DNA from: a virus
Strand: one strand, 5' to 3'
Length of the DNA stretch: 47,337 nt
Virus record (IMG/VR): IMGVR_UViG_3300034375_005592
Span: 1-47,337 of that record
A model generated the notes under the pieces. The model was not told where the DNA came from. It was given only the letters and a program-made list of their open reading frames with translations, and searched no databases. Positions 17,401 through 44,513 of the stretch are shown in pieces. The position numbers and the translations under genes were made by a program. Every line of letters starts with the position of its first letter. The first letter of the stretch is position 1.

Positions 17401-17724
17401 GGAAGAGAAGTACAAAAAGAATATCAAGCTACTTTCCAAACAACAGCTGATAAAGAAATTCTAGTTCAATATACAGAAGTAATTAGAGACGCAAATAATT
17501 ACGATAATATTATCTCTACTGATGAATTACCTGCCCTTACAATAAGTAATCAAGTAAATCTTCCTACTGCTTTAGCAAAATTAGATTTAACTTTTGGAAC
17601 AGGTGCAGATTTAAATTTAACATACACTGCTAAAGGAGGAAGAAGACAACCTTTAGTATTAGCATTTATGGTAGACTCTGATGTATATAGAGATCCTAGA
17701 AGAATGCAAAATATTATTAAATAA
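14443..17724 (+). CDS. Coiled-coil cargo/ejection protein (putative)
   Basis: A 1093-residue acidic protein. Residues 1-120 contain a conserved-looking opening (TTEYKPLGLEAFAEPLSKM, then heptad-rich DDERAKKLLADLDAKTQEL and YRVATQQLQDLNEWF) that I associate with crAss-like cargo proteins. Residues 230-330 and 500-720 are long charged helices, probably coiled coils. Between and after these are beta-type segments (VEYTISATGADGETYEKVV; ITFGTGADLNL-like strands near the end). There is no signal peptide, transmembrane helix or catalytic motif. Start and stop overlap both neighbours by one base (TAATG), so stoichiometric translation with them is likely. The family role is inferred from context and architecture. 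Confidence 0.55.
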   Translation: MPLTPLSTPFTTEYKPLGLEAFAEPLSKMKEKFDVTKSEIDKTKYALSRMSQDDERAKKLLADLDAKTQELSQNLTRSGNYRVATQQLQDLNEWFNTNPEFAGMKQNYNNYQKNYALMQKKLEKREITQDDFETWDYYVRNKFSGTNYDPTTGNYSTGNFTPKSENREKEIEDLVLKIAAMEEDQQVNAIMGINSAVDAGEIRQQLTKYRTKEDAARSIRNFITTGERFKNWKQEDAQMKFFELNDRTKKAALQGLTEDKDPYQFSRNVLIESLPELEELHDQVTKVIANPNATSEDIAKAKEIQAEAEEKMADIQTMLENNDVEAIEQEAAGIYVADKLGYFDKIALAGADIVDFINEGAISSSGSGRKSTKIKEANEVGDIATQLNPVNVMKETPLAGGTSPFNAEENIQLEPVEYTISATGADGETYEKVVEIEPSSSIGAMYQKNVDVLTPFVGGVSKYTTGDGTVSYAQTSDYILTVHAENEALSKTTLGFEQMYDQRIATLTDDINAYKVELLDPTLTEEQEAELEAKIKDARKEKYQATYSKVGQLKDLDFLVTEYINDKSEEELVQIIKDQAGDLNLSDEDIIKDITKLKEDFEANTVSSPKFLDKELNSLIGTRKQEKNELVKNLDNEFKDLMDEAARQFMGKETSELTEAEQEQLELYVSGRMDQQEEGYENIPEEVKAERQRIFERLNAIDGEMDSALDMVDNVFSPGELLLNKIYKEYRKSKTLGSEQFYQIPQIIVDKGADKFSSGQFKALVDDGMVARGSRNSRVIWDPSTRQSIAMDPGGLKHSYTLDAYRTDTPRFAGVDQNGNVIMAFYRKSALTDQNQNLKDWQSYIDKGIQPLAETTQKRLEAYEAGEDVRVKFSKQELEAMQKNNPEVLYLSSEGLDYKPIETVTENFVDYIESANAIANPDNRIEFIEKQRANYAPFYMASNPKAAREYNQFANTLQYRANNGIESSISQGATKPAQSPPYTDAQGREVQKEYQATFQTTADKEILVQYTEVIRDANNYDNIISTDELPALTISNQVNLPTALAKLDLTFGTGADLNLTYTAKGGRRQPLVLAFMVDSDVYRDPRRMQNIIK

Positions 17725-20700
17725 TGGCAGACGAGAAAGAACTCAATCTTAAAGGGATGGATACTAGTAATCCTGATGGAGAACCTCAAATAAATCCCAT
17801 ACTACAATCTGCAGAAGAAAAAATACAATCTTCTGATGCTTATATACAGCCTAGAAAAGAGCAACAAGATTTTATAAATAATCTAGCAAATGCAGGTATT
17901 AACGGAGTAACTAATGATACTATTAAGGGAACTAACTTTATGGTAGATCCCGCTGCTAAAGAATTATTTACTTCTGTTGATTTAGCTAAAGCAATTCCTG
18001 ATCCTAATGAGCGTGCAGAATATATTAGACAGCACGGCAGTAAAATGACTAGGCTACTAGATCCTGATACTTATGGTATAACATTTAATAGAGAGATAGG
18101 AGATTATGCTGCATTTAGACAAAACAATTATTACAAACAATTAAAAAAGTTTGTAGATGATTTAGATGAAAATCAAGGTTTTTGGGAATCATTGGGAACT
18201 ACTTCTGGTAAATTAGCAGGTTCTACATTAAATAATATAGGAGCAAATATTTTAGCACCTATATATGGAGTAGGATCAGCATTATGGAATTGGGATAGAA
18301 CTAAAGTTTTTGATAATGATGTAGGCGAGTGGTTTAATAAAAACCAAGAATACATAGACCAACGTCTTGTAATCTACGGAGGATACGATTATGCTAAAAA
18401 CAGAGATAAACAAACTTTCTTTTCTAGAATAGCTGATCATCCTTTTAAATCTATTAACGACGATATTGTTCCCACAGTCTCTTTTGTTATGGGGGCAGTG
18501 GGTGCAGAAATACTTTTAGGAAAAGTAGGATTAAAAGGAGCCATGGGAAGGCCCACTAGAACGATAGCTCGTGCAGGCGCTATTGGTACAGAAAAATTTT
18601 CTAAAGCTTACAGAGCTATTAGAGGTTTAGAAAAATTAGACGACATACAGTCTATGAGAAAGATAGTAAAAGCTACCGATGCTTTACAAAAAGGTATGGG
18701 TACTATAGGAACTATGTATCGATCAGCTGCTTATGAATCAGCAATGATTGGTAAAGACACTCAAGACAGTACTTTATTACAATCTAAATACGGATATATA
18801 AAGAACGATCCTCAATTGTTTGAGGAATATAAAGAACTTGTTCGCCAAAATACAGATGAGTTTGGTAATCTAGAAATCTCAGAAGAAGAAATCATTGAAA
18901 CTATTGCTAGAAAAATTCCTAGAGGAGAACTAGCAATGATGCAACATAATTCTAAGAATGCAGGTACGGCAGCATTCCTTACTAATATTCCATTAGTAGG
19001 TGCTAGTTATATGATTCAGTTCCCTAAAATATTTGGATCAGGTTTTAGAAACAATCAAAAGATTTTATCTAGAAGCGGAGTCCTTTATGGAACAACTAGA
19101 GATGCTACAGGAAAATTAGTTTCAGAATTTGCAAGTGCAACTAAATTAGAAAAATTCTTATTTAAATATGCAATGCCTTCATTAAAAGTAGGTATTACTG
19201 AAGGATTTGAAGAATTTTCTCAAGGTGTTATAGAAAAAGGATATTCAGACTATTGGGCTTCTCCTTATACTAAAAGCGCTAGAGACTCTTCTATAGGCTT
19301 TATACAAGCTATGGCAAGTGCTTCTAGAAAGTATGCTACATCTATAGAAGGAATTGATTCCATGAGTTTAGGATTTTTAATGGGATTCTTAGGGATTCCT
19401 ATGGTAAAACCTAAAGCAAGTGGTAAGATGGGTCTTGGATGGAGCGGGGGTTTTTATGAAGCAGTAGGAGAAGTATCAGAAAAGATTTCTGAAGTAGAAG
19501 CTGCTATAAAAAATTATAATGAAGGAATTCAAATGAATGAAGTCCTTAAAAATAATTTCGATGCTTTTAGAAAATCTGTTAGTATACAAGAAGATAAAGA
19601 TCTTGCTCTAGCTAAAGGAGATGTCTTTGGATATAAGAACGCAGAATTTGATGAGCTATTTAATTTTGTAGAAAACAGAATGAGCAATGGAATTCTGGAC
19701 ACAGTGTACCAGGATATAGATGCTTTAGAGAATATGTCTCTAGAAGAGTTTAACGAACAGTTTGCTCACAAAGATGAAGCTCTTCAATTTACAGAAGAAA
19801 CTAAAAAGAAGAATTTAGAAACTCTTCGTAAAAGAGTTGACACAATTGTTAAGAATCAAGATACATTTGATTCTATAGCTAGTGATAGAAAAACCTGGAT
19901 AGATAAATTCTTTCTTAAAAATTATAAAGGATTAGATCAATTAGAAGAACTTGACCCAAGTAAGAATCCTGAGCTCGAAATGGATCAGCAGGATTATATG
20001 CGAGCAAAAGCAAACTTTATAAGAAATAAACAAAACGCTCTTAAAAAACAAGCTGTTTATTTATTATCTAGTAGAGACAATCTAAAAGAAAGAGAAAAAG
20101 AACTAAGAGAAAAACTAAATGAATTAGCTCCTAATAGTAATCTAGATGTTTTATATAAAGATGAAAATTATAGAGAAGTACTAGCAGCTGTAGAAAAAGG
20201 AGACGTAATTTATTTTGCACAAGAAGAAGGCAAGAAAAAACTAGATAGTTTTATTAAAGAGATCTTAGGTCAAATAAAAGAAGATAATTTTGAATCATAT
20301 AACTTTAATAAATCTGAAATAGAAGGTATTGTTAAAGATATATTTCAAATTAAAACTAAGCAAGCTAAAGTTTCTGAAATCTATTCTACTCTCTTTACAA
20401 ATAAAGGAGCCAATACCTGGTTTAAATTAAAAGAAGATTTTGAAAAACAATTTGCTGAAGAGCTTATAGATGGCATAAAAAAACGAGCAGAAGAAGCTGT
20501 CAATAAAAAACAAGATGGTTCTAGTGTAAAAACAAATCTTGATTCTTATAGAGAACTTTTTGGAAAAGATGTTCCTGCTCATTCTGAAAATGTTATAAGC
20601 CAATTAAATACTGTAAAATCAAAATTATCTGACCCAGAAACTGCTCCATATGAAGAAGTAGTTGAGGCATTAAAAGATGGAAAGAATGCTAATCTAGTAG

Positions 20701-22103
20701 AACATATTTTTGAAGTTATGGAAAGCCGAGACGAGCTTCCTAATGGATTAGATTACTCATTAGATAATATAGATAACTTTAAAGATAACGAGGATTTTAA
20801 AACTAGTTTTTTAAATGCATTCAATACTATTCTAAATAACTATGAAGATATAGTTTCAGAGATTTCTAAACGTAATACTAACTTTGCTAATTCAAAGAAA
20901 GAAAACGTAACTCCTGAACCTGTACAAAGTACATCAGAGTTTAAAGACGAGAAGAAAGAAGCTTTTACTATTGATGACATGTTCGAAGAAGCTGTCGAAC
21001 AATCTACTAGTGGTAACATTCCTACTATTAACGAAAAGCAATTAAGATTTGACGAAGACGGCAAATTAATAAAAACGCCAATAAATCCACAAACAGGTAA
21101 ACCTTATCCTTGGGAAGATAGTCAAGGTAGACCAACTACTCAAACAGAAATAGATGGGTACGACATGAAGAAAGTTAATAGCCCTGATTGGTTAAATAAT
21201 GAAGATTTAGAAAAATACGAAGAGACAGCTGAATTTAAATTTGCTACTGAGTTAGATGAGAACGGAAATTCTTACGGAGATAAAAGTGTATATGATGCTG
21301 ATAACATCGGTATTAATGTATATCATGGAGATACTTTTATAGGAAGACTTCAAACAACTTCTAGAAACCCTAGTGTAAAAGGTTTAAGAGAGGCTTTATA
21401 TAATTCTACAAAAGAAACTGACGGAGGATTTATATCATCAACAACTAAAGACTCTATAGAATCTTATGAAGGATATCAAGCTACTGTTGCTTTTAAAACA
21501 GAAACTAAAGAAACTACTACATCAAAGTACGTAGAACAGAAAGATCTGCCTCCTATTATTGTTGAGTATAAAGGAGTTAAATATTCTACTAATGTAGATT
21601 TAGTTTTTGGGGAAGGTGAAGTAATTAATCTAGAAACAGGTAAAGTAGTAGGAAATTATTCTTCTCCTTTAGGACGAGCTGTTGTAGATGAGGCTATAAA
21701 ACAAGGATTATATTTCAAACAAGAACAAACTACTACAGTAGATATAGCATCTGATTTAGGATTACTTGATACACTTAAAAAAGGTGATAATATTATACAT
21801 CCAAAATTTGGAAAAGGAACAATAGTTAATATTATTGTAGATCCAAACGGTGTTAGATTTGATCAAGTAGAAATTTTATTTCCTGATGAAGGAGGAATAG
21901 TAAGAATTTCAAAAACAGGTACATTAGAAGATAGTAAACTAATAAAAACTACTTCGCCAGAAACAGAAGTAGAACAGACTGCTAGAGAAAAAGTAATAGA
22001 AGAAAATTTCGATGATATAATTGAACAGCTTAGTAATAGATTCGGTGAAGGGTACGTTGATATCTTAGACGGCAATAACTATATAGGAGAAAAACAATGT
22101 TAG
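17724..22103 (+). CDS. Large cargo protein ending in a PcrA/UvrD-like Tudor module
   Basis: A 1459-residue protein. Residues 150-340 contain two Gly/Ala hydrophobic stretches (GANILAPIYGVGSALWNW and SFVMGAVGAEILLGKVG) that could insert in or line a membrane channel. Residues 560-1090 are charged helices and coiled coils. After an acidic linker, residues about 1350-1410 read GDNIIHPKFGKGTIVNII and VEILFPDEGGIVRI. This closely resembles the C-terminal Tudor-like domain of PcrA/UvrD helicases (GDxVxHxxFGxGTVxxV...IxFPxxGxxxL), which in bacteria touches RNA polymerase. No helicase motifs are present. The chain ends EKQC. The gene lies directly upstream of the virion RNA polymerase. The cargo role is inferred and the Tudor call is fairly strong. 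Confidence 0.6.
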   Translation: MADEKELNLKGMDTSNPDGEPQINPILQSAEEKIQSSDAYIQPRKEQQDFINNLANAGINGVTNDTIKGTNFMVDPAAKELFTSVDLAKAIPDPNERAEYIRQHGSKMTRLLDPDTYGITFNREIGDYAAFRQNNYYKQLKKFVDDLDENQGFWESLGTTSGKLAGSTLNNIGANILAPIYGVGSALWNWDRTKVFDNDVGEWFNKNQEYIDQRLVIYGGYDYAKNRDKQTFFSRIADHPFKSINDDIVPTVSFVMGAVGAEILLGKVGLKGAMGRPTRTIARAGAIGTEKFSKAYRAIRGLEKLDDIQSMRKIVKATDALQKGMGTIGTMYRSAAYESAMIGKDTQDSTLLQSKYGYIKNDPQLFEEYKELVRQNTDEFGNLEISEEEIIETIARKIPRGELAMMQHNSKNAGTAAFLTNIPLVGASYMIQFPKIFGSGFRNNQKILSRSGVLYGTTRDATGKLVSEFASATKLEKFLFKYAMPSLKVGITEGFEEFSQGVIEKGYSDYWASPYTKSARDSSIGFIQAMASASRKYATSIEGIDSMSLGFLMGFLGIPMVKPKASGKMGLGWSGGFYEAVGEVSEKISEVEAAIKNYNEGIQMNEVLKNNFDAFRKSVSIQEDKDLALAKGDVFGYKNAEFDELFNFVENRMSNGILDTVYQDIDALENMSLEEFNEQFAHKDEALQFTEETKKKNLETLRKRVDTIVKNQDTFDSIASDRKTWIDKFFLKNYKGLDQLEELDPSKNPELEMDQQDYMRAKANFIRNKQNALKKQAVYLLSSRDNLKEREKELREKLNELAPNSNLDVLYKDENYREVLAAVEKGDVIYFAQEEGKKKLDSFIKEILGQIKEDNFESYNFNKSEIEGIVKDIFQIKTKQAKVSEIYSTLFTNKGANTWFKLKEDFEKQFAEELIDGIKKRAEEAVNKKQDGSSVKTNLDSYRELFGKDVPAHSENVISQLNTVKSKLSDPETAPYEEVVEALKDGKNANLVEHIFEVMESRDELPNGLDYSLDNIDNFKDNEDFKTSFLNAFNTILNNYEDIVSEISKRNTNFANSKKENVTPEPVQSTSEFKDEKKEAFTIDDMFEEAVEQSTSGNIPTINEKQLRFDEDGKLIKTPINPQTGKPYPWEDSQGRPTTQTEIDGYDMKKVNSPDWLNNEDLEKYEETAEFKFATELDENGNSYGDKSVYDADNIGINVYHGDTFIGRLQTTSRNPSVKGLREALYNSTKETDGGFISSTTKDSIESYEGYQATVAFKTETKETTTSKYVEQKDLPPIIVEYKGVKYSTNVDLVFGEGEVINLETGKVVGNYSSPLGRAVVDEAIKQGLYFKQEQTTTVDIASDLGLLDTLKKGDNIIHPKFGKGTIVNIIVDPNGVRFDQVEILFPDEGGIVRISKTGTLEDSKLIKTTSPETEVEQTAREKVIEENFDDIIEQLSNRFGEGYVDILDGNNYIGEKQC

Positions 22104-22121: not shown

Positions 22122-22138
22122 ATAAATTTTAATTCATG
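22122..22138 (+). promoter_or_regulatory. AT-rich leader before the RNA polymerase gene
   Basis: The 32-base gap after the preceding stop ends in TAAATTTTAATTCATGG. This is the muzzle-gene leader with one extra T, and no purine-rich ribosome site is present. Unlike its neighbours, this gene is not stop-start coupled, so it relies on its own initiation signal. The element is inferred from similarity to the copy at 2744. Confidence 0.35.
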
Positions 22139-25100
22139 GCTTGTAAGTATTGGTACGACGGTAATTGGCGAAGTGAGGAAGAGTTTAAATCTATTCTTAA
22201 TAATGGTTTATTAGATCAGCTATTAAGAGGTGAAGCGATTTCTCTAAAAGAGTTTCAGTTAGATGAAACTAAAATAATCAACAAACCTAAAGAAACTGTA
22301 CAGCAAGCTCCTGTAAGAGTTAGAATTAAAAGAAAGATTCAAAGAAATCTTAATGTTGGTACAGATCCACAAAACAATGGAGAGCCTTTAAAAAATAATC
22401 CTGCTGTTTTATTAAAAAAAGCAGCTGATGCTAGAGGCGATAAAAATAATGAACTACTATTAGTTATTAAAACTATTGATCGTGTTAACATTGGACAAGA
22501 TGGACAAGGAGATACAGTCATGAGTACTATTCATACAGGGAGAGCGGGGTCAGAAAAAGCAAAAGCATTAAGAGAAAAACTAGAAAACTCTAAAGTAAAT
22601 CTCAGTGAAAGTTTAGAACCTGGATATGTTTACATGTTAGTTCCTTCTGCATATGGTTTATATCCTGTTAAGTTATTTACCCATAAGATAGCAGATACAA
22701 ATGATTTTGACACTGTAAAAACTAAACTAAAAGAATTACAAGAAGCTACTAATATTGATGATATCAAAAAAATTAGAGAAGTTCTTGAAGATATTACTTA
22801 TAGATTTAATATTGAATACAAAAGAGGCAATACTAAAAAAGATTCTTATTTCGAATTTAAGTGGACAGAAGTAGAAGGAGAAGTAATTGTCCCTCAAGAA
22901 ATAAAAATTCCAGGAGATCAAATAGATGCAGCTATTGATTTTTTAGGAAAAAGAATTAGAAAAATAGATTTTGCTAGAATCAACGAAGGAAACTATAATC
23001 AACAAGTTGCAGAAAGCGGAGCTATTACTACTGACTTATTTCATGAAGACGGTAACTTCTTTCATTCAAGTTCTTTCTTTTTAGAAACTTATCAATTAAG
23101 TGAGTCTGAGAAAAAAGCTTATGAGCAGCAAGTATTAGACTTTGATAAAAGTGATGAGAAAAATTTCAATGAGGAATTTGGTCCTACATCTAACGAAGCT
23201 TATGAGCCTAATCCTAATCAAACTAGTACTAAGAAAGACGAAGCAGAATACTTTGATGATCAAATACCTCCCGATGATTTTGAATTTGAGTTTGATGAAG
23301 AGTTAGCACTTCTTTCAGCACAAGCTACAGAAGAAGGAAAGAAACAACAAAAAGGAGAACCAGTAAAAAAAGAAGAGCCAGGTGAAAGAGCTCCGACAAG
23401 AGAAGAGATTATAGACTCTGACCAAGAATTATCTGCACAAGATCTTGATGATATAATAAAAGCTGCAGAAGAACAAGGCATCTCTGCAGGTGTAGCAGCA
23501 ATGGAAGAAACTAGAAGTAATGAAAGTACTCTTCTTGATTCAGAATCAGAGACTGGTGACGATATAGATACTGATGTATCTTCTAGCGATGATATAATAG
23601 GAGATCCTTTTGGAGATAGTAATCTTAAAACAAAAATGGGCCCTAAGATGGACCCTGAACTTGCTAAAGAAGATGCTAAGAAAGCTAGAGAACAAGGATT
23701 AGAAACTCTTAAAAGAATATTAGGAGAGTCTTTTAAAAGACAGTCAGGAAAGAAAGGCACTGTTAGAGTCATTAAAGATTTTGATTCTTTACGCCACTAC
23801 CTTCCTAAAGAATCTTTTGAGATGCTGCAACAAGCATTAAAAAACGGAGATGAGTTATATGGATTATTTACTACTGCTGCAGTATTAATATCAGAGTTAG
23901 CTCCAGCAGGAACAGAAGCTCACGAAGCATTTCATGTTATTTTTAATTTAGTTCTGCCTATAGAACAAAGAGTTAAAATCTTAAATGAGATCTTTTATAA
24001 GTATCAAGAAGAGATTCCTTTAACAAGAAAAGAAGTTACTCTAGAAGACGGTACTAAAGAAGTTCAATATGTTAGACCTACTTTTATTGAGTTAGAAGAA
24101 TTCTTAGCAGATAAGTTTATGGCTTATGAACAAAGCCAAGAAGTTGATAAGCTTAAGCCTGTAAGCAAGCAACCTGTCCCTGAAGATAAAAGAACGGGGC
24201 AACAAAAAACTAAAGATATATTAGCAGGTAAAGAAAATTTTAAAGAGACTAATGCTTTTTTTAAAGGTCTTTCTAGAATGTTACGAGTTTTCTTTAAAAA
24301 GAATAAAGTTCTAAACATAGATAACTTATTTGAGAATATAAACTTAGGAGTGTATGCGGATTCTATAAAATTTAAAAACACTGTATTAAAAAGATCTATT
24401 AGACAATCTATCGGACAATCTGTAAGAACTACTGCTCCTAACAGAAAGTATATAAATCCAGTTGAGAAAAAATGGGCGTTAAGATATTTTAACAGTAAGA
24501 TTAAAAAAGCCATTGAAGGATTCCGCCAACAATTAGACCCAGAAAATAAATTATCTGTACCTGAAATAATAAATTTAGTAGGTAAGAAGTCTAAGAACTC
24601 AGGTCCTCATATTATATTTAGTAATGCTATTACTGATGTTGTTCGAGATATAGCAGTCGCAAAACAACTTCTTGCACAAGCAGAGGCAGCTGGAGATACT
24701 AAAAAAGTTGCTAAGTTTAAAAACTTAATTCATCACTTTAGTAAGTTCTATAAAATCATAACTAATAATCAAAAGATTGTTAGGAAGAATCCAAAAGGTA
24801 GAATAGAATTTATGAAGTCTTCTGATTTATTAGAACAGTTTAATAGATTCTTAAAAAGTAATGAAGGTATTGAAATTAGTTATGGAGGATTTGAAGCAGA
24901 GAGTAGATCTCCTCAAGAAGGCACTAACGGTCAAGTTACAGAACAAGATTATATAAATGCTATTGAAGAAGGAGAAGATACTCCAGATAGAGTAGCACAG
25001 ATAAATAGTATTGAAAGAAATCCTAAGCAGGGAATGAAGCAACAGCTTATTAGTTTCTTTGCTAATATTCCTAAATATAATTCTGATGGTTCAAAAGCAA

Positions 25101-28100
25101 TTTCTCCTTTTGGTATTCAAGATGTAGAAGATTCTAATGTAGTATTTGCTGCTTTAGTATCTAAAGTAGCTAATAGTTATACTTTAGAAAACTTTGACGC
25201 AAAACTAGCTACTCTAAATAAACCTTGGAAACAAGATGTTATAGATTTATTTGCTCAGAATCCAAGACTAAGAACATTGTTCTTTGCCAATTTTGCTAGT
25301 AAAAACTTTGCAGAGTTTGAAAGTGTCTATGAAGTAAATGGAGAATTTAGAGTATTTAGTTCTAACTCTAAAACTATCAAAGATATTATTTCAGAAGATC
25401 TTATAGCTAACTTCTTATCTAGTACTAACTCATTATATAAAGTAGGTAAACAAGATGCTCTTTGGACAGATAATATAGACGCAGCTAAAGCCAAAGCTTT
25501 CTTAGATGGTTTACTAAAATTAGATTTTTTATATAGACAAAATGATGTTAGTGCTGATGAAAAAGTAGCTGAAAAAAGTGTAGACTTTTTTGAAAACGGA
25601 AAATTCTTTAAACTACTTTCTGATCACTTAGCTACTGTAAATCTTTTCTTAACTCCTGAACAATTAGATAAAATCTATAATAGTGGAGGAGCAAAATTCT
25701 TATATAAAAGAGGAAAGATTGGAAATCTATTACGTGTTCTCCAAGAGGTAGGTAAAAAACTAGTTGGAACAGATAGAACAGCGATGGAAAGTCGAACTGT
25801 TGTTGGCGAAGACGGAAAGAAAAGAACAGTTAAGACTCCTAAATATAAAAGAGACGCAAAAGCAAGAGTTAATCCATTTACTAAACTAACTCCTGAAACA
25901 GATATTCAGTACGGAAAAAGTAAAGCTTCAGGAAAAAGTTTAGTACAACAATTAGCAGAAGCTATAGAGCCTGCACTAGACACCGAATTAGTTTCTAGTT
26001 TTAGAGGTATAGGAGGTAAAACTAAGTATAACATTATTCTTTCAGGACAGATTAATAAAATGTTAGAAGAAGTTAAAGATGAAGATAGTCTTCAGAAGCT
26101 TATAGATAATGTAGCAGGAAATGATTTATTAGTAAGTAACTTGCCTTTCTTACAAGATTTAAAAAATGACGACGGTTTAAGAAATAATCTTAAATCTATT
26201 ATATTAGACGGACTTACTAGAAAAGGACAAAACAAAGCTGTTACTTATGGTAAGATGTCTGATATAGAATTAGAAGCAACTTCTTTTGGTTTATATTATA
26301 GAAGAGGTAAAAGAGAATACCAACAAGGTAATGTGGGTATTAAATTAGGTATACCTTCAAACTCTCCTACTGCCCATTATTTAAAAGTAAAGAGACTTAG
26401 TAAAGATGAAATTATAGATAAACTTACAGATACTGCTATCGCAGAAATGGAAAGAATGAAGTTTATCAAAGGCTTGGAAGAACAGTATAAAAAAGAAAAG
26501 AAAGAAAATAAAGATGCTGTTCCTCATCCATTATTATTAAATAAGAACTATGTAAAAAGAGGAAAGAACTTTCAATTACTTACTTTTTTAAATAAAGTTC
26601 CTGCTAAAAATCTTAAAACTAAACAAGGTATTAAAAAAGAAATTCAAAAATTCTTTGAGTTTAATTTAGAAAAAGATACTTTCTTTAGACAACAATATCT
26701 TAAATATAAAGAATCAGGAATTGTTGAAGGAAAAACAGCAGAAGGATTAATGACATTTAATCCTAATATTTTAGACAAAAGTCTAGAAACTACTCAAGCA
26801 CAAAACGAAGTATTTATAGATTACCTTATGAATACTTTTTATTATAATGCTCAAACAAATGTTTTATTTGCAGGAGATCCTAGTTTTTATAAAGGTACTA
26901 CAGATTATCAAAAACGTTTTAAGCAAATCTTTAGTCCTGGTACATACACTACTTTAACAGGAAGTTATAGCGCTATTATTTTAGAAGACTCGATGGTTCC
27001 TACCTCTAAAGAAAATCTAAAACATATCAATGATATTATTGATAAGTCTAATATGACTCCTGTAGAAAAAGAAGCATTGAAAATAATGTGGAAAGAAAAG
27101 GCTAATGCTAAAAAAGTAGGAGATCAAAATAATGAATCAGATGGTGGTACTTTTGTATCTTTAGATTTCCGTAAAAAAATATTAAAAGGTTTAGGAGAGT
27201 GGGGAGAAGCCCATGATAAAGCCTATGATAGAATTAAAAAAGGAAAAGAAACTATAGAAGATTTAAGAATTATAGATCCTCCTGCATCTCCATTAAAACC
27301 ATTTACATTTACACAAATGTATGTTGATGGTGTAAGAGTTCCTATGCAGATTAAGAACTCTGAAACAGTACTTACTAAATCTTTTGCTCTTAAAAAAGAT
27401 AAGCAAGGTAATCTAGTTTATCCTAAACTTGCTGCAATATATGAAGATATGGAAAGAGGCGCATATGAAGTAGCTCTTTTTGAATCAGCTGTTAAAGTAG
27501 GAGGAATAACAAATGGAAAAGATAGTAGGTTTACTCACTATGAAAAGCAAGCTGACGGAAGCTACATACCTTCTGTAGGATATGATAGTGTTAAAGTATT
27601 TAATTTAGATATATCTGATTACAGAAAACAGCAAGAAACTCCTGCTCACCATATTGATGAAAGAAGTAATTTTGGATCACAGCTAAGAACTCTTATTACT
27701 GGTGATATAGCAATGGACCAGGATTATGATTTATTTATAGGCGATACTAGAACTTCATTAAAAGGATATGAAGTAGTTTCATTATATCAAGATATTATTT
27801 TCGACGACTTAAAAGAATCTTTCGAGTCATTAGAAAAAGATATGGTAAATCCTGACGGTACTCTTAATTATGTAAAGCTGATTCCTTTATTAAGAGAACA
27901 TGCTGTTGAAAGAAATATGGGAGACCAATATCTTCAAGCTATTTCTCCAGTAGAAGTCACTGTTAATGATGCATCATTAGGATCAAAAAAAACAATTACT
28001 ACAGCTTTGCCTTTATTCCATCCTAGAATTTTATATCAAACAGAAACTCTTTTGCATTCTATCTTTAAAAACAATGTAGTTAAACAAAAAATTAAAGGGG

Positions 28101-31100
28101 GAGGGGTAATTAACACGCCTTCTTACGGTGTAAGTACTCTTCAAAGAGAAGAAGATGCAGATCTTGTAGGAGAAAGATACCATCCTAAATTAAAAATTGA
28201 AGATGGTAAAATTATTTGGGAAGTATTAATGCCTCATACATCAAAGAAATTTTTTCCTACTAAAGACGGAGAAGTTGACTTTGAATACATAAACATGTAT
28301 GCTTCTGAGCTATTAGAAATTATAGCTAACAGGATTCCGACGGAAGATAAATACTCTATGTTTAATATTAGAATTATAGGATTTACTCCTCCGTCTATGG
28401 CTAATACTATTATAATGCCTCCTGAAGTAACTACTATTGCAGGTCTTGACTTCGATATTGATAAATTGTATTTCTTATCTAAACATTTTAGAGTTATAGA
28501 TAATATTCCCAAAATAACTCAATACTACAGTACTATAGATAACCAAGAACAAGCAAATGATCTTGCTGAAAATATTTATAGAAATAAAATATTAATTAAA
28601 AAATTTGCAGAGGATACTATAAAAAATGAAAAAGAAAGAGAAGAGTTTTTAAAAAGAGTAGAAACTTCAATACAAGAAGTAGCTCTAGCCACAAAAGATA
28701 AAAATCGTAGCCTTTCAGATATTAAAAGAGAAATTAGAGAAAGTGAAAGAGAATTAAAAAAGTCTAAACAATTAAATACTGAAGATGCTAAAGCTCTAAA
28801 AAAAGAACTTCAAGAAACAATCGATTCTTTTTATAATATTTTAAATGGACAAGAATGGGACGAAGAGCTTGTTGAAAAAAGTATAGCGCTTCAAGAAGCA
28901 GAAGAAGGTAAAAATGTAATTATTGATGTAATAGCTAGTGCACTTCTTGATGCTAAAAATCTTGGCATAAATATATCAAGTTACAATACTAGAGCAGCTA
29001 GAGATAATATGAAAATAAATATTATGAAGTCTATTCTAGAAAATAGAAATACTGCTGCTGCAATTATTAATCCAGGTAACTTTGATTCTTTAAAATATGC
29101 AGGTGCTAGAATTAGATTATTAAAAGCAGGCAAAACTAAAGAAGCTAATTTAAAAGGAAAAGAATTATTAGCAGCTGCAGATAAACTAGATGATGATGCC
29201 GACTTTAACATTGCTTATCCTTCTACTCAATTAGAGTTATTCCGACGTAACATGGACGGTAACGATCTTATTGGTATTATGGCGAATCATAATACTCACC
29301 ATGCTAAAGCTCAGTATACAAATCTTAAATTAGTAGACCAATTAGAATTTAATAAACAAACTTATCAAGCATTAAATCAAATTAGAAGTAGAACTGGTAA
29401 AAGAATTTCAAGAATACTTGCGACTAAATTAGCAGCTGTTGTGGATAATGCGAAAGAACCTATTTCAGCATTCTTAAACTTCAACATGTTTACTGCTAAT
29501 GTAGTAGCACTTGCAGATAGACTTGGTGTCGACGAAGCCTTTATGTTTGCTTTACTAAATCAGCCTGCAATATTAGAACTAACAAATAGAGTTCAAAATG
29601 AACAAGGGTCTATGAGTAAACAAAATCTTGTTTCTCAAATAAAGAAAGAGATTATAGCTAATCTTCAAGAACAGATTCCTAGTGGAACTACTGTGAAACC
29701 AGTAAATATAAAAGACTTAACTACTGAGATGTTAGAAAAAACTCTAAGTGGTAAGAAAGGTGTTAAAAATGCTTTTATCCAAAAAGCAGCACTTGCTTTA
29801 TTTGAAGAATTAGATACTATAGCAGAAGAATTATCTAGAGGAATACGAGCTTCTAAAACAGATTCTGTTACTGCTTACGGATCTACTGGTGCAGCTGACT
29901 ATGTATTCTTAAACAATCAAACAAGAATATTAGTAGACAATCAAAGAGGAGCTAATAAAATATCAGGTTTAGAAGAAATTTTCTTATATAAAAATCCTAA
30001 ACAAAAACAAAGCCCCGCATTTACAACATACGGTTTATATAAGCCTATTGGTATTTACGAAAAGGTGTTTCCAACTATTGGTAATATAAATGAAAATAAT
30101 CCTACAGAAACTAAGTTCTCTCCTTTAGGATTAATTAAAGAAAAGTTTACTGAGTTTAAAGGTACAGGAGTTTTAAGAGAAGAAGAAGCGCAATTAATTA
30201 ATAGTAACTATTTAAATTACATTGCTAGTGAATTTAAGTTTTTCCACCACGATCAGATAGACGATATATTAAAGAAATTCCCTGGAGAATTTTTAACGTT
30301 TAAAAGAAACTTACCTGAGAATTCTCCATTTAAACCATTAATGGACCAACTTCATATAGTACGTCCAGATTTAACTTCTCCTATTAGCAGAATTCAATTC
30401 TATCAAACAGGAAAGTTTGCTGAAGATATAGAAGCATTATCAGATTCTTGGGAAAGAATGTTATTAGACCCTGATCCTGAAATTAGAGAGATAGCAAAAA
30501 AATTAATAAAGTATTCGTTCTTTGCTAACGGATTTAATTTCGGTCCTTATACATTTGCTAATGTTATTCCCGTCATGTTCTTTACTAATGAGTATCAGTC
30601 TACTCAACCAGACTTAATGATACAAGATGGAGGAGGACAGCTTACTATGAACGAACTTCTTCAGAAAAGATTAATGGTAGAGAATTATGATTCTGAGTAT
30701 AATGGAAGATTTATAGAACAATTTATTCGTAACTATTCTAATCGTCATAATTTTATTCCTACTGCTAAAATAGATAGAACATTATCAGAAGAAGATGCTG
30801 GGAATTACCTGACTCCTACAGGAAGAATTACATCAACTTTCTACGAAGCAGATGCTAATATAATAAAAGACTTAAAAGGCAATTTAGTTGTCATAGGTAA
30901 TTATGCTACAACTAATCTTAGAGACAGATTCGACGAACCTGTACCGTATATAAAAGCATATGATACTAAAATAAATAATCATTATGCAACTTCTATCTAT
31001 AAATTAACAGATACAATTATAGAATACAATAGTAATAACCAAGAAATTGTTGTTTATAAATATAATAGAGTACCTAATTTAGGGATTAGTAATGTCGCTT

Positions 31101-32479
31101 TAGAATTTAATGCATTAGGAGCAATAGAAAACTCTGTATCTCCTGCACCAGACACTATAAAAGACGGCAAAACAGAAGCTCAAAGATTAGCAGACCAAGC
31201 AGTCGATAATGAAATCACACAAAATATTAAATCAGCAGAGGGAGAAGTACCGAGTACAATTAAACCTAAAGTAGATTTAACAAAGAAAACAGCTCCAGTA
31301 GATCTTTCTACCGATACAGAAATGTATAGACTTCAGTATAAAGATGCTGAGTTTATAGCAGAGATTAAGAATGGGAAATTCCAAATATTCAATGCTAAGA
31401 ATATGGAGCAAAAGTTTGTAGATAAGACTCCTGAAAATGACCCAGTGGTTAAAGAACTTTACGAAATGTTTAAGCTAAAGGTTTCAGGTATCTCAGAGAC
31501 GCTTGTAGACAATTATCATGATAGTGTTTCTTGGGAACAATTAGCTGTGAATTTTGATAGAAGCTTTTTTGATCCAGAAAAAATTAAAGGCAGTCAAGAT
31601 GTACTCAGAGCTTTTTGGCCTTATCTAGAAAAAGACTCTAATATATCACAGCTAGTTACTAAACTAGGAAGAGTTAATTTTGAAGTTAAATTTTTAAATA
31701 ATGAAGAGTGGGCAGAGCAAACAAGAGGTAGAGGTACTTACATGTTCTACTATAATGACACAATATATTTAAATGAAGAAACAATACGACAAGTAGATAG
31801 TGGAGCATTTTATTTATATGCTTTCCTCCATGAAGTAACCCATGCTTTTACTATTGATTTAGTTGTTAAAGGAAAACAAACTACTGTAAAAGATGGTAAA
31901 AGAGTTACTCAAGATATTATAGACAAAGAGTTAAGACAAAAGAATACTGAGCTAACAAATTTATTTAAGGAAGCAAAAAATTTAGATAAAAAGAGTGAAT
32001 CTCCGAAGCAAGATCTTTACGGTTTTACAGATGAATTTGAATTTGTAGCAGAAATTTTTACTAATCCTGACTTTGCAAATCATGTTAAAAGCTTAAGAGC
32101 TCCACAAGAATCAAAAAGTATTTGGCAAAAATTTATAGATTGGTTAACTTCGATATTTTATGAAGTACCTAAAAAAGGTAGAGGAGAAGAAATTTACGAA
32201 GAATCTATGGAACTTATAAACGCAATAGTAGAAAATGTAACTAAGGATTACAGAGAAACGATACAGCGTGAAAGAGAACAGATAAGTGAAGGAGATAAAT
32301 GGTTAAGAGATAACCAAAATTATATAGTAGAAGAGATATATCAAAATGGTCCAAGTATAACTAATTATCTTTATGGAATAAAAACTGCTAACGGTACATC
32401 TACTAGAGATATAATGACTCAACAAGAATGGGACACTCTTTCTCCTGAAGAAAAATATAATGTTATAAAATGTAACTAA
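22136..32479 (+). CDS. Giant virion RNA polymerase of crAss-like type, with two flanking zincin motifs
   Basis: A 3447-residue protein, much longer than the about 2180 residues of phi14:2 gp66, the characterised relative. The catalytic signature is AGLDFDIDKLYF with Asp2105, Asp2107 and Asp2109. It is preceded by RIPTEDKYSMFNIRIIGF and IIMPPEVTT, as expected for the metal-binding double-psi barrel. PMQIKNSETVLTKSF (Lys1740) and IKGGGVINTPSYG (from 1987) may belong to the partner barrel. The single-chain, two-barrel layout is that of QDE-1-like polymerases. Residues 330-510 are acidic and disordered. HEAFH (596-600) followed by EEFLAD (from 654) forms one zincin-like site. HEVTH (3232-3236) followed by FVAEIF (Glu3306) forms a second. 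The enzyme is expected to be packaged, injected and used to transcribe early genes. Confidence 0.85.
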   Translation: MACKYWYDGNWRSEEEFKSILNNGLLDQLLRGEAISLKEFQLDETKIINKPKETVQQAPVRVRIKRKIQRNLNVGTDPQNNGEPLKNNPAVLLKKAADARGDKNNELLLVIKTIDRVNIGQDGQGDTVMSTIHTGRAGSEKAKALREKLENSKVNLSESLEPGYVYMLVPSAYGLYPVKLFTHKIADTNDFDTVKTKLKELQEATNIDDIKKIREVLEDITYRFNIEYKRGNTKKDSYFEFKWTEVEGEVIVPQEIKIPGDQIDAAIDFLGKRIRKIDFARINEGNYNQQVAESGAITTDLFHEDGNFFHSSSFFLETYQLSESEKKAYEQQVLDFDKSDEKNFNEEFGPTSNEAYEPNPNQTSTKKDEAEYFDDQIPPDDFEFEFDEELALLSAQATEEGKKQQKGEPVKKEEPGERAPTREEIIDSDQELSAQDLDDIIKAAEEQGISAGVAAMEETRSNESTLLDSESETGDDIDTDVSSSDDIIGDPFGDSNLKTKMGPKMDPELAKEDAKKAREQGLETLKRILGESFKRQSGKKGTVRVIKDFDSLRHYLPKESFEMLQQALKNGDELYGLFTTAAVLISELAPAGTEAHEAFHVIFNLVLPIEQRVKILNEIFYKYQEEIPLTRKEVTLEDGTKEVQYVRPTFIELEEFLADKFMAYEQSQEVDKLKPVSKQPVPEDKRTGQQKTKDILAGKENFKETNAFFKGLSRMLRVFFKKNKVLNIDNLFENINLGVYADSIKFKNTVLKRSIRQSIGQSVRTTAPNRKYINPVEKKWALRYFNSKIKKAIEGFRQQLDPENKLSVPEIINLVGKKSKNSGPHIIFSNAITDVVRDIAVAKQLLAQAEAAGDTKKVAKFKNLIHHFSKFYKIITNNQKIVRKNPKGRIEFMKSSDLLEQFNRFLKSNEGIEISYGGFEAESRSPQEGTNGQVTEQDYINAIEEGEDTPDRVAQINSIERNPKQGMKQQLISFFANIPKYNSDGSKAISPFGIQDVEDSNVVFAALVSKVANSYTLENFDAKLATLNKPWKQDVIDLFAQNPRLRTLFFANFASKNFAEFESVYEVNGEFRVFSSNSKTIKDIISEDLIANFLSSTNSLYKVGKQDALWTDNIDAAKAKAFLDGLLKLDFLYRQNDVSADEKVAEKSVDFFENGKFFKLLSDHLATVNLFLTPEQLDKIYNSGGAKFLYKRGKIGNLLRVLQEVGKKLVGTDRTAMESRTVVGEDGKKRTVKTPKYKRDAKARVNPFTKLTPETDIQYGKSKASGKSLVQQLAEAIEPALDTELVSSFRGIGGKTKYNIILSGQINKMLEEVKDEDSLQKLIDNVAGNDLLVSNLPFLQDLKNDDGLRNNLKSIILDGLTRKGQNKAVTYGKMSDIELEATSFGLYYRRGKREYQQGNVGIKLGIPSNSPTAHYLKVKRLSKDEIIDKLTDTAIAEMERMKFIKGLEEQYKKEKKENKDAVPHPLLLNKNYVKRGKNFQLLTFLNKVPAKNLKTKQGIKKEIQKFFEFNLEKDTFFRQQYLKYKESGIVEGKTAEGLMTFNPNILDKSLETTQAQNEVFIDYLMNTFYYNAQTNVLFAGDPSFYKGTTDYQKRFKQIFSPGTYTTLTGSYSAIILEDSMVPTSKENLKHINDIIDKSNMTPVEKEALKIMWKEKANAKKVGDQNNESDGGTFVSLDFRKKILKGLGEWGEAHDKAYDRIKKGKETIEDLRIIDPPASPLKPFTFTQMYVDGVRVPMQIKNSETVLTKSFALKKDKQGNLVYPKLAAIYEDMERGAYEVALFESAVKVGGITNGKDSRFTHYEKQADGSYIPSVGYDSVKVFNLDISDYRKQQETPAHHIDERSNFGSQLRTLITGDIAMDQDYDLFIGDTRTSLKGYEVVSLYQDIIFDDLKESFESLEKDMVNPDGTLNYVKLIPLLREHAVERNMGDQYLQAISPVEVTVNDASLGSKKTITTALPLFHPRILYQTETLLHSIFKNNVVKQKIKGGGVINTPSYGVSTLQREEDADLVGERYHPKLKIEDGKIIWEVLMPHTSKKFFPTKDGEVDFEYINMYASELLEIIANRIPTEDKYSMFNIRIIGFTPPSMANTIIMPPEVTTIAGLDFDIDKLYFLSKHFRVIDNIPKITQYYSTIDNQEQANDLAENIYRNKILIKKFAEDTIKNEKEREEFLKRVETSIQEVALATKDKNRSLSDIKREIRESERELKKSKQLNTEDAKALKKELQETIDSFYNILNGQEWDEELVEKSIALQEAEEGKNVIIDVIASALLDAKNLGINISSYNTRAARDNMKINIMKSILENRNTAAAIINPGNFDSLKYAGARIRLLKAGKTKEANLKGKELLAAADKLDDDADFNIAYPSTQLELFRRNMDGNDLIGIMANHNTHHAKAQYTNLKLVDQLEFNKQTYQALNQIRSRTGKRISRILATKLAAVVDNAKEPISAFLNFNMFTANVVALADRLGVDEAFMFALLNQPAILELTNRVQNEQGSMSKQNLVSQIKKEIIANLQEQIPSGTTVKPVNIKDLTTEMLEKTLSGKKGVKNAFIQKAALALFEELDTIAEELSRGIRASKTDSVTAYGSTGAADYVFLNNQTRILVDNQRGANKISGLEEIFLYKNPKQKQSPAFTTYGLYKPIGIYEKVFPTIGNINENNPTETKFSPLGLIKEKFTEFKGTGVLREEEAQLINSNYLNYIASEFKFFHHDQIDDILKKFPGEFLTFKRNLPENSPFKPLMDQLHIVRPDLTSPISRIQFYQTGKFAEDIEALSDSWERMLLDPDPEIREIAKKLIKYSFFANGFNFGPYTFANVIPVMFFTNEYQSTQPDLMIQDGGGQLTMNELLQKRLMVENYDSEYNGRFIEQFIRNYSNRHNFIPTAKIDRTLSEEDAGNYLTPTGRITSTFYEADANIIKDLKGNLVVIGNYATTNLRDRFDEPVPYIKAYDTKINNHYATSIYKLTDTIIEYNSNNQEIVVYKYNRVPNLGISNVALEFNALGAIENSVSPAPDTIKDGKTEAQRLADQAVDNEITQNIKSAEGEVPSTIKPKVDLTKKTAPVDLSTDTEMYRLQYKDAEFIAEIKNGKFQIFNAKNMEQKFVDKTPENDPVVKELYEMFKLKVSGISETLVDNYHDSVSWEQLAVNFDRSFFDPEKIKGSQDVLRAFWPYLEKDSNISQLVTKLGRVNFEVKFLNNEEWAEQTRGRGTYMFYYNDTIYLNEETIRQVDSGAFYLYAFLHEVTHAFTIDLVVKGKQTTVKDGKRVTQDIIDKELRQKNTELTNLFKEAKNLDKKSESPKQDLYGFTDEFEFVAEIFTNPDFANHVKSLRAPQESKSIWQKFIDWLTSIFYEVPKKGRGEEIYEESMELINAIVENVTKDYRETIQREREQISEGDKWLRDNQNYIVEEIYQNGPSITNYLYGIKTANGTSTRDIMTQQEWDTLSPEEKYNVIKCN

Positions 32480-43343: not shown

Positions 43344-44513
43344 TTATTTAGTACTCATTTGTAAAACATTTTGATCTAGCATCATCTTAGAAAACTTAGC
43401 TTTATGACCGCCTAATAATTCTTTTACTATATAATATTTTAAATCTTCAGTAAAAGTGTTGAATTTAGTCGTAAGCTTAATTAATCTATTAATCATTGAT
43501 TCAGGAACATGTCCTTCAGAAGCAGTACGCAAACAATAATTAATTAATCTAGTAGCCAAGACACTTGCTATGTCAGCACGATATGTATCATTAACTCCGA
43601 CACAATCATCAAGAGCTTCTAATAACTCTTTCTCATCTTTTTGAATTAATTCTTGAGGAGTAAGAATCTTATCTAGCTGATTATTAATAAACATAACAAA
43701 TAAACTTGCTGCTTCTGGACCAATAGAACCTTCGCCTACCATTTGTATAAGGGGTAATTCTTTACTAAAGTCTTTAATAGAACTAATAGAATTAAAGAAT
43801 GTAGTAATAGACCTAGGATTAATTTCTTGAGTTATTATTTCAGGATGCATTAATAAGAAATTAATACAACGACCATCTATTCTCATATTCTCTGCCCACC
43901 GTGCCCATACATTAGCATCAAACTTAGTCTCAACAGATATGAAACGAGTTTTCTGCGCATTATCTAGACTAGTAACATTATAATCACCATTGTCAGGATT
44001 AGTAGTTAAGATAACATGCCAGTTTCTAGGAAGTCGCCAGCTAACATATTCTTGTTTATCTATCAATTCCATACAAGCTTGCATAAATCTATGATCAGCA
44101 CGAGTATAGTCATCTAGAACTAAGAAACCGCCTTCACCACGACCCTGAATCCATTCAGGTGCAGCATGAGACATTCTTTTATCTACAACTTTATAGCCTT
44201 TCTTGTTAGCAGTATCAATTTCTTGCTCAGTAATCCATAAAGACTTACCCTCGTTATTTTTAACTTGGAATTCTTTAACAGGAAAACCTACTAAATCGCC
44301 TAACTCTTCTAGCTGTGCTAAGTTTAGCTTTACTACTTGCATGTCAAGCTCACTGCCTAACTGCATAATAGCAGAAGTTTTACCAAGGCCAGCTTCACCT
44401 TCAATATTTACAGCAACAGGAACTTTACCGTCTTCCTGTATATGTTGGTTATTGCTTACCATATGTTTGATGAATCCTTTTAATTCATCTACGTTTAATT
44501 GTAATTGATTCAT
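43344..44513 (-). CDS. MoxR-type AAA+ ATPase
   Basis: A 389-residue protein. Walker A is GEAGLGKTS (Gly39-Lys45-Thr46). Walker B is FLVLDDYTRAD (Asp134-Asp135). Sensor 1 is LTTNPDN (Asn172). The arginine region is NAQKTRFISVE (Arg190). The layout fits the AAA_5/MoxR clade, whose members act as chaperones with a von Willebrand factor A (VWA) partner. Here the next gene upstream in the operon encodes exactly such a VWA protein, separated by 12 bases. In cells the pair remodels metal enzymes or envelope complexes; in phages the target is unknown. Its position next to primase and recombination genes suggests a role in replication or host takeover, which is inference. Confidence 0.82.
   Translation of the reverse strand: MNQLQLNVDELKGFIKHMVSNNQHIQEDGKVPVAVNIEGEAGLGKTSAIMQLGSELDMQVVKLNLAQLEELGDLVGFPVKEFQVKNNEGKSLWITEQEIDTANKKGYKVVDKRMSHAAPEWIQGRGEGGFLVLDDYTRADHRFMQACMELIDKQEYVSWRLPRNWHVILTTNPDNGDYNVTSLDNAQKTRFISVETKFDANVWARWAENMRIDGRCINFLLMHPEIITQEINPRSITTFFNSISSIKDFSKELPLIQMVGEGSIGPEAASLFVMFINNQLDKILTPQELIQKDEKELLEALDDCVGVNDTYRADIASVLATRLINYCLRTASEGHVPESMINRLIKLTTKFNTFTEDLKYYIVKELLGGHKAKFSKMMLDQNVLQMSTK

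What the first reader, a model, noticed from the sequence alone, without database searches (positions are those of the whole stretch)
22136..32479. Virion RNA polymerase core flanked by two HExxH zincin motifs in one 3447-residue chain
DFDID at 2105-2109 marks the polymerase. HEAFH at 596-600 (with EEFLAD about 55 residues on) and HEVTH at 3232-3236 (with FVAE, Glu3306) each have the spacing of a gluzincin-type site. Two protease-like modules, one on each side of the core, suggest self-processing: the giant chain could be cut after injection to release an active core. Zincin domains in large phage polyvalent proteins are known; this two-sided arrangement around a crAss-like polymerase is what deserves attention.
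Basis: partly seen in the sequence, partly recalled or inferred. Interest (0 to 1): 0.82.

Follow-up and report, generated by a model that had tools for sequence, protein, structure and literature searches.

The report
Phage-injected polymerase with two protease domains
A gut-phage-type virus makes its RNA polymerase as one giant protein that also carries two zinc-protease-like domains, one on each side, and comparison with relatives suggests that these are injected enzymes whose main job is not to cut the polymerase free.

Summary
The 3447-residue chain is a crAss-like virion RNA polymerase (DFDID at 2105) with HEAFH at 596 and HEVTH at 3232. They are homologous to each other. In the crassvirus loci sampled, Zn1 lies upstream of the polymerase or on a separate chain, and Zn2 is patchy, while gene borders move. 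Only the window lineage has both on the polymerase chain (2 of 84 non-redundant loci). Zn2 is homologous to the zincin just after the unrelated N4 virion polymerase.

Self-processing to free the core is not supported. Zn1 keeps its active site in 9 of 9 loci where it is encoded apart from the polymerase (7 on the opposite strand). Of 13 loci with polymerase and P3 in one chain, 7 show no active zincin. N4's full-length enzyme is reported intact and active.

Best reading: co-ejected proteases acting on something other than the polymerase seam. Self-processing and a structural role remain rivals. No chemistry was tested. New variant of a known kind.

The parts
17724..22103 (+). P1, upstream cargo protein, 1459 aa; homologous to the N-terminal part of crAss001 gp47 and of fused giant chains, and weakly to phi14:2 gp67
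   Evidence: iterated profile (crAss001 gp47 res 78-846, E 2e-166; phi14:2 gp67 res 70-399, E 9e-11; fused chain L037 res 86-913)
22136..32479 (+). 3447-aa virion RNA polymerase chain with two zincins
22136..23167 (+). N-terminal region (res 1-344), homologous to the stretch ahead of Zn1 in fused chains (e.g. L029 res 1202-1496)
23168..23788 (+). acidic linker (res 345-551; 27% D+E), poorly conserved
23789..24367 (+). Zn1 zincin-like domain (res 552-744); HEAFH at 23921-23935, proposed third ligand E655 at 24098-24100
   Evidence: most conserved of the nine segments compared between window and L004, 81%
26900..29398 (+). RNA polymerase core (res 1589-2421), DFDID at 28448-28462
31136..31717 (+). 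variable linker between polymerase and Zn2 (res 3001-3194)
   Evidence: 38% identical to L004
31718..32227 (+). Zn2 zincin-like domain (res 3195-3364); HEVTH at 31829-31843, proposed third ligand E3302 at 32039-32041; homologous to N4 vRNAP C1
32479..36948 (+). P3, downstream cargo protein, 1489 aa (homologue of crAss001 gp49 and phi14:2 gp65); its ATG overlaps the polymerase stop codon (TAATG)

Best explanation
A crAss-like virion RNA polymerase carries two homologous gluzincin-type zinc-protease modules of the kind found in other phage proteins that are injected with the DNA. Zn1 lies before the polymerase and Zn2 after it, at the seams with the partner cargo proteins P1 and P3. Shown: both modules, their conserved catalytic residues, their homology to each other and of Zn2 to the N4 polymerase's zincin, and the varying gene partition. 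Inferred: the modules bind zinc, are ejected with the polymerase, and cut a target in trans (a host protein, or a co-ejected or envelope protein) early in infection; they ride on the polymerase chain for delivery. Freeing the polymerase is at most a secondary role.
For: Catalytic residues are conserved over divergent sequences: Zn1 H596/E597/H600/E655 21 of 21 in A5, Zn2 H3232/E3233/H3236 21 of 21 and E3302 20 of 21 in A4 (HExxH helped to choose many of these rows, so the later Glu is the more independent part). In six dead Zn1 copies both His and E655 are lost in the same rows, as expected of zinc ligands. Structural look: the first 19 rows for Zn1 are all Pro-Pro endopeptidases or ATLF-type zincins (Z 6.0-6.8); for Zn2 the first rows include PhiM1 TEP (Z 6.4, but over model residues 132-226 only, without the HExxH helix), N4 vRNAP (Z 5.5 over the whole domain) and ATLF. 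A Zn2 profile built from 17 crassvirus rows finds the domain in Presley vRNAP (8e-15), BF25/12 (8e-15), RHph_TM27A (7e-19) and N4 vRNAP (domain 1.4e-4, whole chain 4.7e-8); reversed sequences give 0.14 at best per domain and 0.0099 per chain. Those 17 rows were recruited with a profile that held three of the non-crassvirus members, so plain tblastn is the cleaner link: Presley zincin to phi14:2 3e-5 and cr55_1 2e-5; window Zn2 to phi14:2 2e-4 and Presley 1e-2. Active-looking Zn1 is kept in 9 of 9 loci where its chain is not the polymerase chain, 7 on the opposite strand. Distribution is patchy: fewest changes 13 for Zn1 state and 8 for Zn2 on the polymerase tree (an overcount where contigs are cut). 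The Presley zincin alone also matches a DarB-like antirestriction protein of Serratia phage Parlo, 3e-4.
Against: No substrate or activity is known; nothing biochemical was done. Zn1 keeps its place next to the polymerase in much of the tree and is more conserved than the polymerase core between window and L004 (81% against 72%), which could mean a role tied to the polymerase. Dead copies keep a profile-detectable domain, so a structural role is likely in at least that clade. Structural matches are all below Z 8. The absence of dead copies among split loci (0 of 9) against fused ones (7 of 38) is not significant (Fisher p 0.32), and the dead copies are few evolutionary events.
Confidence: 0.5

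Rival explanations
1. Self-processing polyprotein: the zincins cut at the seams, in the head or after ejection, to separate P1, polymerase and P3 (the first reader's view; proposed in general terms for N4-like vRNAPs by Iyer et al. 2017).
For: The zincins sit near seams that are gene boundaries in other phages. Gene breaks fall on either side of Zn1: before it in the window clade and in L093/L102, after it in the crAss001 group and L086 (in L086 the separate chain runs 1159 residues past Zn1). Phage P1 DdrB is processed before packaging (PMC5512222, Peptidases section read). Release of Zn1 from P1 is not excluded by any result here.
Against: Active sites are kept where the Zn1-polymerase seam is already a gene boundary, 9 of 9. 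Seven of 13 polymerase-P3 fused loci lack an active zincin. N4 vRNAP is packaged unprocessed (PMC5512222), and recombinant full-length protein was active; the authors saw no evidence of degradation, a remark made about missing N-terminal density (PMC12633501, sections 7 and 11 and passages). crAss001 virion gels show bands at about 150, 270 and over 300 kDa, and gp47, gp49 and gp50 were detected (PMC6235969, passages; which band is which is in a figure I did not see). No cleavage-like motif stood out after Zn1 in the nine chains aligned (by eye).
Confidence: 0.27
2. Structural role: the zincin fold is a packing, ejection or membrane module of cargo proteins; catalysis is secondary or absent.
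For: Dead copies persist (six loci of one clade and L088 for Zn1, L087 for Zn2). Both domains are followed by a conserved helix-like stretch (FFKxLxxxIK in Zn1, lldkiidalkklfG in Zn2) that I read as amphipathic; not computed. The region holding the N4 domain is required for encapsidation (as stated in PMC5512222).
Against: HExxH is kept in 40 of 47 non-redundant loci that have Zn1 and in 17 of 18 that have Zn2; a loose third-Glu pattern is also met in all of these but three (L018 and L094 for Zn1, L085 for Zn2). L094's Zn1 is split by an insert.
Confidence: 0.18
3. Chance HExxH motifs without zincin domains.
For: Pfam and PHROGs scans of the whole chain give no zincin hit; Foldseek gives no PDB match with E up to 0.001 for either model.
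Against: 0.032 motifs expected; conservation with a third Glu over tens of divergent loci; homology of Zn2 to the N4 C1 domain, described as bearing a conserved HExxH (PMC12633501, passages).
Confidence: 0.02

Closest known systems
crAss-like virion RNA polymerase (phi14:2 gp66, PDB 6vr4; crAss001 gp50)
   Same: Homologous core with DFDxD; same partner proteins P1 and P3.
   Different: phi14:2 gp66 (2180 aa) and crAss001 gp50 (2412 aa) have no HExxH and no zincin-profile hit in the chain. In phi14:2 Zn2 lies in gp65; in crAss001 Zn1 lies near the C-terminal end of gp47, on the opposite strand.
Phage N4 vRNAP gp50 and its C1 domain (res 2124-2375)
   Same: Homologous zincin directly after the polymerase; ejected giant chain (PMC12633501, preprint).
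   Different: The N4 polymerase is of the single-subunit T7-like type (PMC12633501), not two-barrel; one zincin, not two; a large C2 domain follows in the same chain.
Zincin-like MPTase domains of polyvalent proteins (Iyer et al. 2017, PMC5512222)
   Same: HExxH plus a Glu on a later helix, in large proteins predicted to be injected with the DNA; more than one copy per chain is known there.
   Different: Crassviruses are not in the passages or section of that paper that I read; assignment to one of its 12 clades was not tested.
PhiM1 tetrameric ejection protein gp48 (PDB 8vb2)
   Same: Residues 276-566 match the Zn2 profile at 1.7e-28 (the profile holds a relative, BF25/12).
   Different: Its authors call residues 268-528 endolysin/exotransglycosidase-like (PMC11440229, passages). 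No polymerase domain is mentioned in the passages I read.
P23-45 gp96 tape-measure-fused virion RNA polymerase
   Same: Another injected polymerase in one chain with a metallopeptidase domain (PMC10770324, passages).
   Different: Tape measure protein of a long-tailed phage; relation of its peptidase to Zn1 or Zn2 not tested.

Membership tests
crAss-like virion RNA polymerase | Core with DFDxD metal motif, homologous to phi14:2 gp66 | tested here: met
crAss-like virion RNA polymerase | P1-like and P3-like partner genes beside it | tested here: met
crAss-like virion RNA polymerase | Packaged in the virion and injected | not testable with these tools
   inferred from crAss001 and phi14:2 (PMC10172136 and PMC10136315, passages)
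Gluzincin-type metallopeptidase | HExxH and a conserved downstream Glu | tested here: met
   E655 21 of 21 in A5, E3302 20 of 21 in A4; E655 lost together with both His in six dead copies
Gluzincin-type metallopeptidase | Zincin fold | tested here: inconclusive
   AlphaFold2 mean pLDDT 72 and 63; VIA Z up to 6.8 and 6.4, top rows mostly zincins but below Z 8; no coordinates were available to measure ligand geometry
Gluzincin-type metallopeptidase | Zinc binding and proteolysis | not testable with these tools
   needs purified protein
Zincin MPTase of phage polyvalent proteins (N4 vRNAP C1 kind) | Sequence homology to the N4-like vRNAP zincin | tested here: met
   Zn2. Zn1 only through Zn2: hhalign probability 95.5, E 1.5e-8
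Zincin MPTase of phage polyvalent proteins (N4 vRNAP C1 kind) | Placement in one of the 12 clades of Iyer et al. | not tested
   their alignments were not at hand
Self-processing polyprotein | Protease kept where parts are fused and dispensable where they are separate genes | tested here: not met
   the split-against-fused contrast by itself is not significant (p 0.32)
Self-processing polyprotein | Cleavage products in virions or infected cells | not testable with these tools
   no proteomics for this phage

The most novel reading that the evidence does not exclude
One family of ejected zinc proteases serves several unrelated phage ejection machines. The same module was placed next to two unrelated virion RNA polymerases (T7-like in N4, two-barrel in crassviruses) and in the tetrameric ejection protein of PhiM1-type phages. 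It acts in trans in the newly infected cell as a takeover or counter-defence enzyme, not as a polyprotein processor. The window lineage doubled the dose by having one on each side of the polymerase.
Probability: 0.4. Interest if true: 0.78.

Novelty: new variant of a known kind. Interest (0 to 1): 0.6.

Why it matters
Crassviruses are described as the most abundant viruses of the human gut (PMC10172136, abstract in listing), and what their giant co-injected proteins do besides transcription is open. The finding assigns a likely enzyme to regions annotated only as RNA polymerase subunit or RNA polymerase associated protein in culturable phages too (crAss001 gp47, phi14:2 gp65). It links them to a zincin that is seen but unexplained in the N4 structure. 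It also turns the self-processing idea into a test with a clear prediction, and the comparative data go against that idea.

Tried and rejected
Pfam and PHROGs on the whole chain gave nothing useful. Pfam on each Zn2 member gave weak SprT-like hits in 11 of 21 (best 2e-4); Zn1 members gave no family shared by more than one of 21. NCBIfam gave one strong hit in one of 21 Zn2 members (A1S_2505 family phage protein, 1.4e-16) and else weak ones. Foldseek against the PDB had no hit at E up to 0.001 for either model; its best Zn2 hits were N4 vRNAP entries at E 0.15 and 0.38. Looking for a cleavage motif after Zn1 in the window clade led nowhere. A link between dead zincins and chain state was not significant (Fisher p 0.32). 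Whole-record searches found Zn1 in 1 of 32 records given (the window's own phage) and Zn2 in 4 of 32: the window's own phage and three weak partial matches without the HExxH half (crAss001 gp49, and the records of L078 and L088). Many of those records are fragments.

Caveats on counts. Of 103 sequences held (102 loci and the window), 98 gave a crassvirus polymerase chain with the motif; the other five are L008, L009, L010 and L022 (not crassviruses) and L016, bajarodcaudo virus, whose polymerase gene is interrupted and was not scored. L016's zincin, in a P1-type chain on the opposite strand at the Zn1 place, scores with the Zn2 profile (1e-32) rather than Zn1 (6e-4), so the Zn1/Zn2 division is not perfect. 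The 84-locus set is 98 less 14: 13 near-duplicates and one short core. 'None' includes contigs cut before the place of Zn1. L062/L063 have an HEVGH at the Zn1 place that the Zn1 profile did not score; they count as none. The tree is a quick one with long branches and 28 of 81 inner branches unsupported.

Literature. 'Zincin' with 'crAss-like' and 'RNA polymerase', and with 'crAssphage', gave 0 papers; 'crAss-like' with 'metalloprotease' 4, listing only; with 'metallopeptidase' 8, of which passages of two were read; 'Crassvirales' with 'peptidase' and 'RNA polymerase' 0. In Yutin 2021 (PMC7886860; passages and part 1 of section 7) and the crAss001 atlas (PMC10172136, passages) and the 2023 review (PMC10136315, passages), 'zincin' and 'protease' occur 0 times. 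Yutin 2018 and Drobysheva 2021 are not held, so a zincin could be named there; I could not check.
Full report
Observation. The window is an IMG/VR virus record of 47337 bases. The ORF at 22136-32479 encodes 3447 residues with HEAFH at 596, DFDID at 2105 and HEVTH at 3232. Composition alone predicts 0.032 HExxH motifs for the chain. Three other contigs carry the same chain and L004 carries a relative whose polymerase segment is 69% identical, with the same layout.

The polymerase. Residues 1589-2421 match 111 phage records, among them crAss001 and two Cellulophaga baltica phage records. A profile of 15 crassvirus cores, phi14:2 included, matches the solved phi14:2 polymerase at 2.6e-161. The chain is therefore a crAss-like virion RNA polymerase by homology; packaging in the virion is inferred.

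The two zincins. Profiles were built from the first relatives, iterated, and applied to all ORFs of 102 loci and the window. Zn1 is HExxH with a later LEExLAExF; Zn2 is HExxHA, then YGxxxxxEFxAE, then NxxF. In A5 (Zn1, 21 rows) H596, E597, H600 and E655 are 21 of 21; in A4 (Zn2, 21 rows) H3232, E3233 and H3236 are 21 of 21 and E3302 20 of 21. HExxH helped to choose many rows, so the later Glu is the better test. In the wider Zn1 set of 39 rows (A2), six copies have lost both His (to W and R) and the Glu at 655 in the same rows, which fits zinc ligands decaying together. Zn1 and Zn2 are homologous (hhalign probability 95.5, E 1.5e-8). AlphaFold2 models (mean pLDDT 72 and 63) place HExxH and the Glu on separate helices of the expected order. 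VIA-align ranks Pro-Pro endopeptidases and ATLF-type zincins in the first 19 rows for Zn1 (Z 6.0-6.8). For Zn2 the first rows are PhiM1 TEP (Z 6.4, over the Glu-helix part only), a dynein helix (5.5), N4 vRNAP (5.5) and ATLF (5.0-5.4). All are under 8, so I call the fold likely, not proven. I had no coordinates with which to measure ligand geometry.

Order and moving gene borders. Iterated profiles of the flanking genes show that P1 (17724-22103) is homologous to the N-terminal part of crAss001 gp47 and of several fused chains, that residues 1-344 of the window chain are homologous to the stretch ahead of Zn1 in fused chains, and that P3 (32479-36948) is homologous to crAss001 gp49 and phi14:2 gp65. 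Where Zn1 shares a chain with the polymerase (38 non-redundant loci) it starts 1308-1703 residues before DFDxD. In 9 loci it is on another chain; in crAss001, cr128, cr85 and Dulem41 that chain has the P1 match and Zn1 is near its C-terminal end. Zn2 on the polymerase chain (13 loci) follows DFDxD by 738-1107 residues in 11 and precedes it in 2, L053 and L091. In 5 loci it is on another chain: in phi14:2, cr53, cr272 and cr4 ahead of the P3 match, and in cr10 (two tandem copies) in the downstream ORF, which the record end cuts. Gene breaks fall before Zn1 in the window clade and in L093/L102, and after Zn1 in the crAss001 group and L086, where the separate chain runs on for 1159 residues.

Counts. 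Of 84 non-redundant loci (98 less 14 dropped), Zn1 is active-looking on the polymerase chain in 31, dead there in 7, active-looking on another chain in 9, not found in 37. For Zn2 the numbers are 12, 1, 5 and 66. Both are on one polymerase chain in 2, window and L004. 'Active-looking' rests on HExxH; a loose third-Glu pattern failed in three of these (L018, L094, L085). Within the 9-row supported clade that holds the window only these two have Zn2, so the two-sided chain looks like a local gain. On the tree the fewest changes are 13 for Zn1 state, 8 for Zn2 and 7 for P3 fusion; cut contigs inflate the first two.

Test of self-processing. If Zn1 exists to free the polymerase, it should decay where its chain and the polymerase are already separate genes and be kept where they are fused. 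The data lean the other way. Nine of nine loci with Zn1 on a separate chain keep HExxH and the EE pair, and in seven of them that chain is on the opposite strand from the polymerase. All six non-redundant members of one clade (L055, L059, L061, L065, L068, L070; 5472-5711 aa in the five complete chains) join a long N-terminal region that the P1 profile does not match, Zn1, polymerase and P3, and have a dead Zn1 and no Zn2 in the stretches held. L087 has a dead Zn2. So 7 of 13 polymerase-P3 fusions lack an active zincin, and 6 have one. The split-against-fused contrast alone is not significant (p 0.32), and the dead copies are few events (two Zn1 losses on the tree, and one Zn2 case). Self-release of Zn1 from P1 is not excluded.

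Link to other ejection machines. In plain tblastn the Presley vRNAP zincin finds phi14:2 at 3e-5 and cr55_1 at 2e-5, and window Zn2 finds phi14:2 at 2e-4 and Presley at 1e-2. A Zn2 profile from 17 crassvirus rows finds Presley vRNAP (8e-15), the BF25/12 internal protein (8e-15), a 2307-residue protein of Rhizobium phage RHph_TM27A (7e-19) and N4 vRNAP (domain 1.4e-4, chain 4.7e-8) among 838 ORFs; reversed sequences give 0.14 per domain and 0.0099 per chain at best. The rows had been recruited with a profile that held three of these proteins. Among solved structures the A4 profile, which holds N4 and BF25/12, also matches two chains not in it: an internal virion protein (9sfn, 5.6e-15) and a gp10 (23sg, 1.1e-11). 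Iyer et al. 2017 (PMC5512222; abstract, passages and the Peptidases section read) described the N4 domain (res 2130-2448), offered self-processing or host targeting, and note that N4 vRNAP is packaged unprocessed while P1 DdrB is processed. The N4 structure preprint (PMC12633501; abstract, sections 7 and 11, passages) places C1 at 2124-2375 after a 23-residue linker, reports that the C-terminal domain dampens transcription and that the full-length enzyme is active, and saw no evidence of degradation. So the same module follows two unrelated polymerases. The PhiM1 paper (PMC11440229, passages) calls the corresponding region of its TEP endolysin/exotransglycosidase-like; the Zn2 profile says zincin.

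Constraint. Between window and L004 Zn1 is the best conserved of nine segments (81%; polymerase core 72%), while Zn2 is 44% identical but keeps its catalytic residues. Zn1 thus looks important and Zn2 fast-changing.

Conclusion. Anatomy: firmly supported. Mechanism: I favour co-ejected proteases acting in trans (0.5) over self-processing (0.27) and a structural role (0.18). I found no description of zincins in crassviruses in the searches made, but two key papers are not held, so priority cannot be claimed.

Noticed in passing
window 44526-45770 (-): 414-aa protein with HELLH: DUF2201 putative metallopeptidase plus VWA-like domain (Pfam 3e-17 and 1e-17), beside an ATPase gene (PHROG 1297) at 43344-44513; its best PHROG is labelled HNH endonuclease. 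Not part of the finding.
   Followed up: partly
PhiM1 gp48 (PDB 8vb2), residues 276-566: Region called endolysin/exotransglycosidase-like by its authors matches the ejected zincin profile.
   Followed up: partly
L055, L059, L061, L065, L068, L070: A clade with a long N-terminal region, polymerase and P3 in one chain (5472-5711 aa in the five complete ones) and a dead Zn1 (WEAxR in place of HEAFH).
   Followed up: partly
L016 (bajarodcaudo virus 1) 27377-35389 (-), residue 2426: Zincin at the Zn1 place of a P1-type chain scores with the Zn2 profile, not Zn1: a possible replacement. Its polymerase gene is interrupted by an endonuclease gene.
   Followed up: no
L006 (crAss001 gp49), record position 56286-56585 (-): Weak match (1.5e-5) to only the part of the Zn2 profile after the catalytic half; may be a zincin remnant or a shared helical region.
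   Followed up: no
window 32477-32481: Stop of the polymerase ORF and ATG of P3 overlap as TAATG, which suggests translational coupling.
   Followed up: no
L017 (cr10_1), ORF 17595-21203: Two Zn2 zincins in tandem (HEIVH 565, HEIAH 806) in the downstream ORF.
   Followed up: no
Serratia phage Parlo NC_048758: DarB-like antirestriction protein matches the Presley vRNAP zincin at 3e-4, a hint of a counter-defence link.
   Followed up: no
window 8941-11007 (+): 688-aa protein in the virion gene block with a glucosaminidase domain (Pfam 4.7e-20), likely a wall hydrolase.
   Followed up: no
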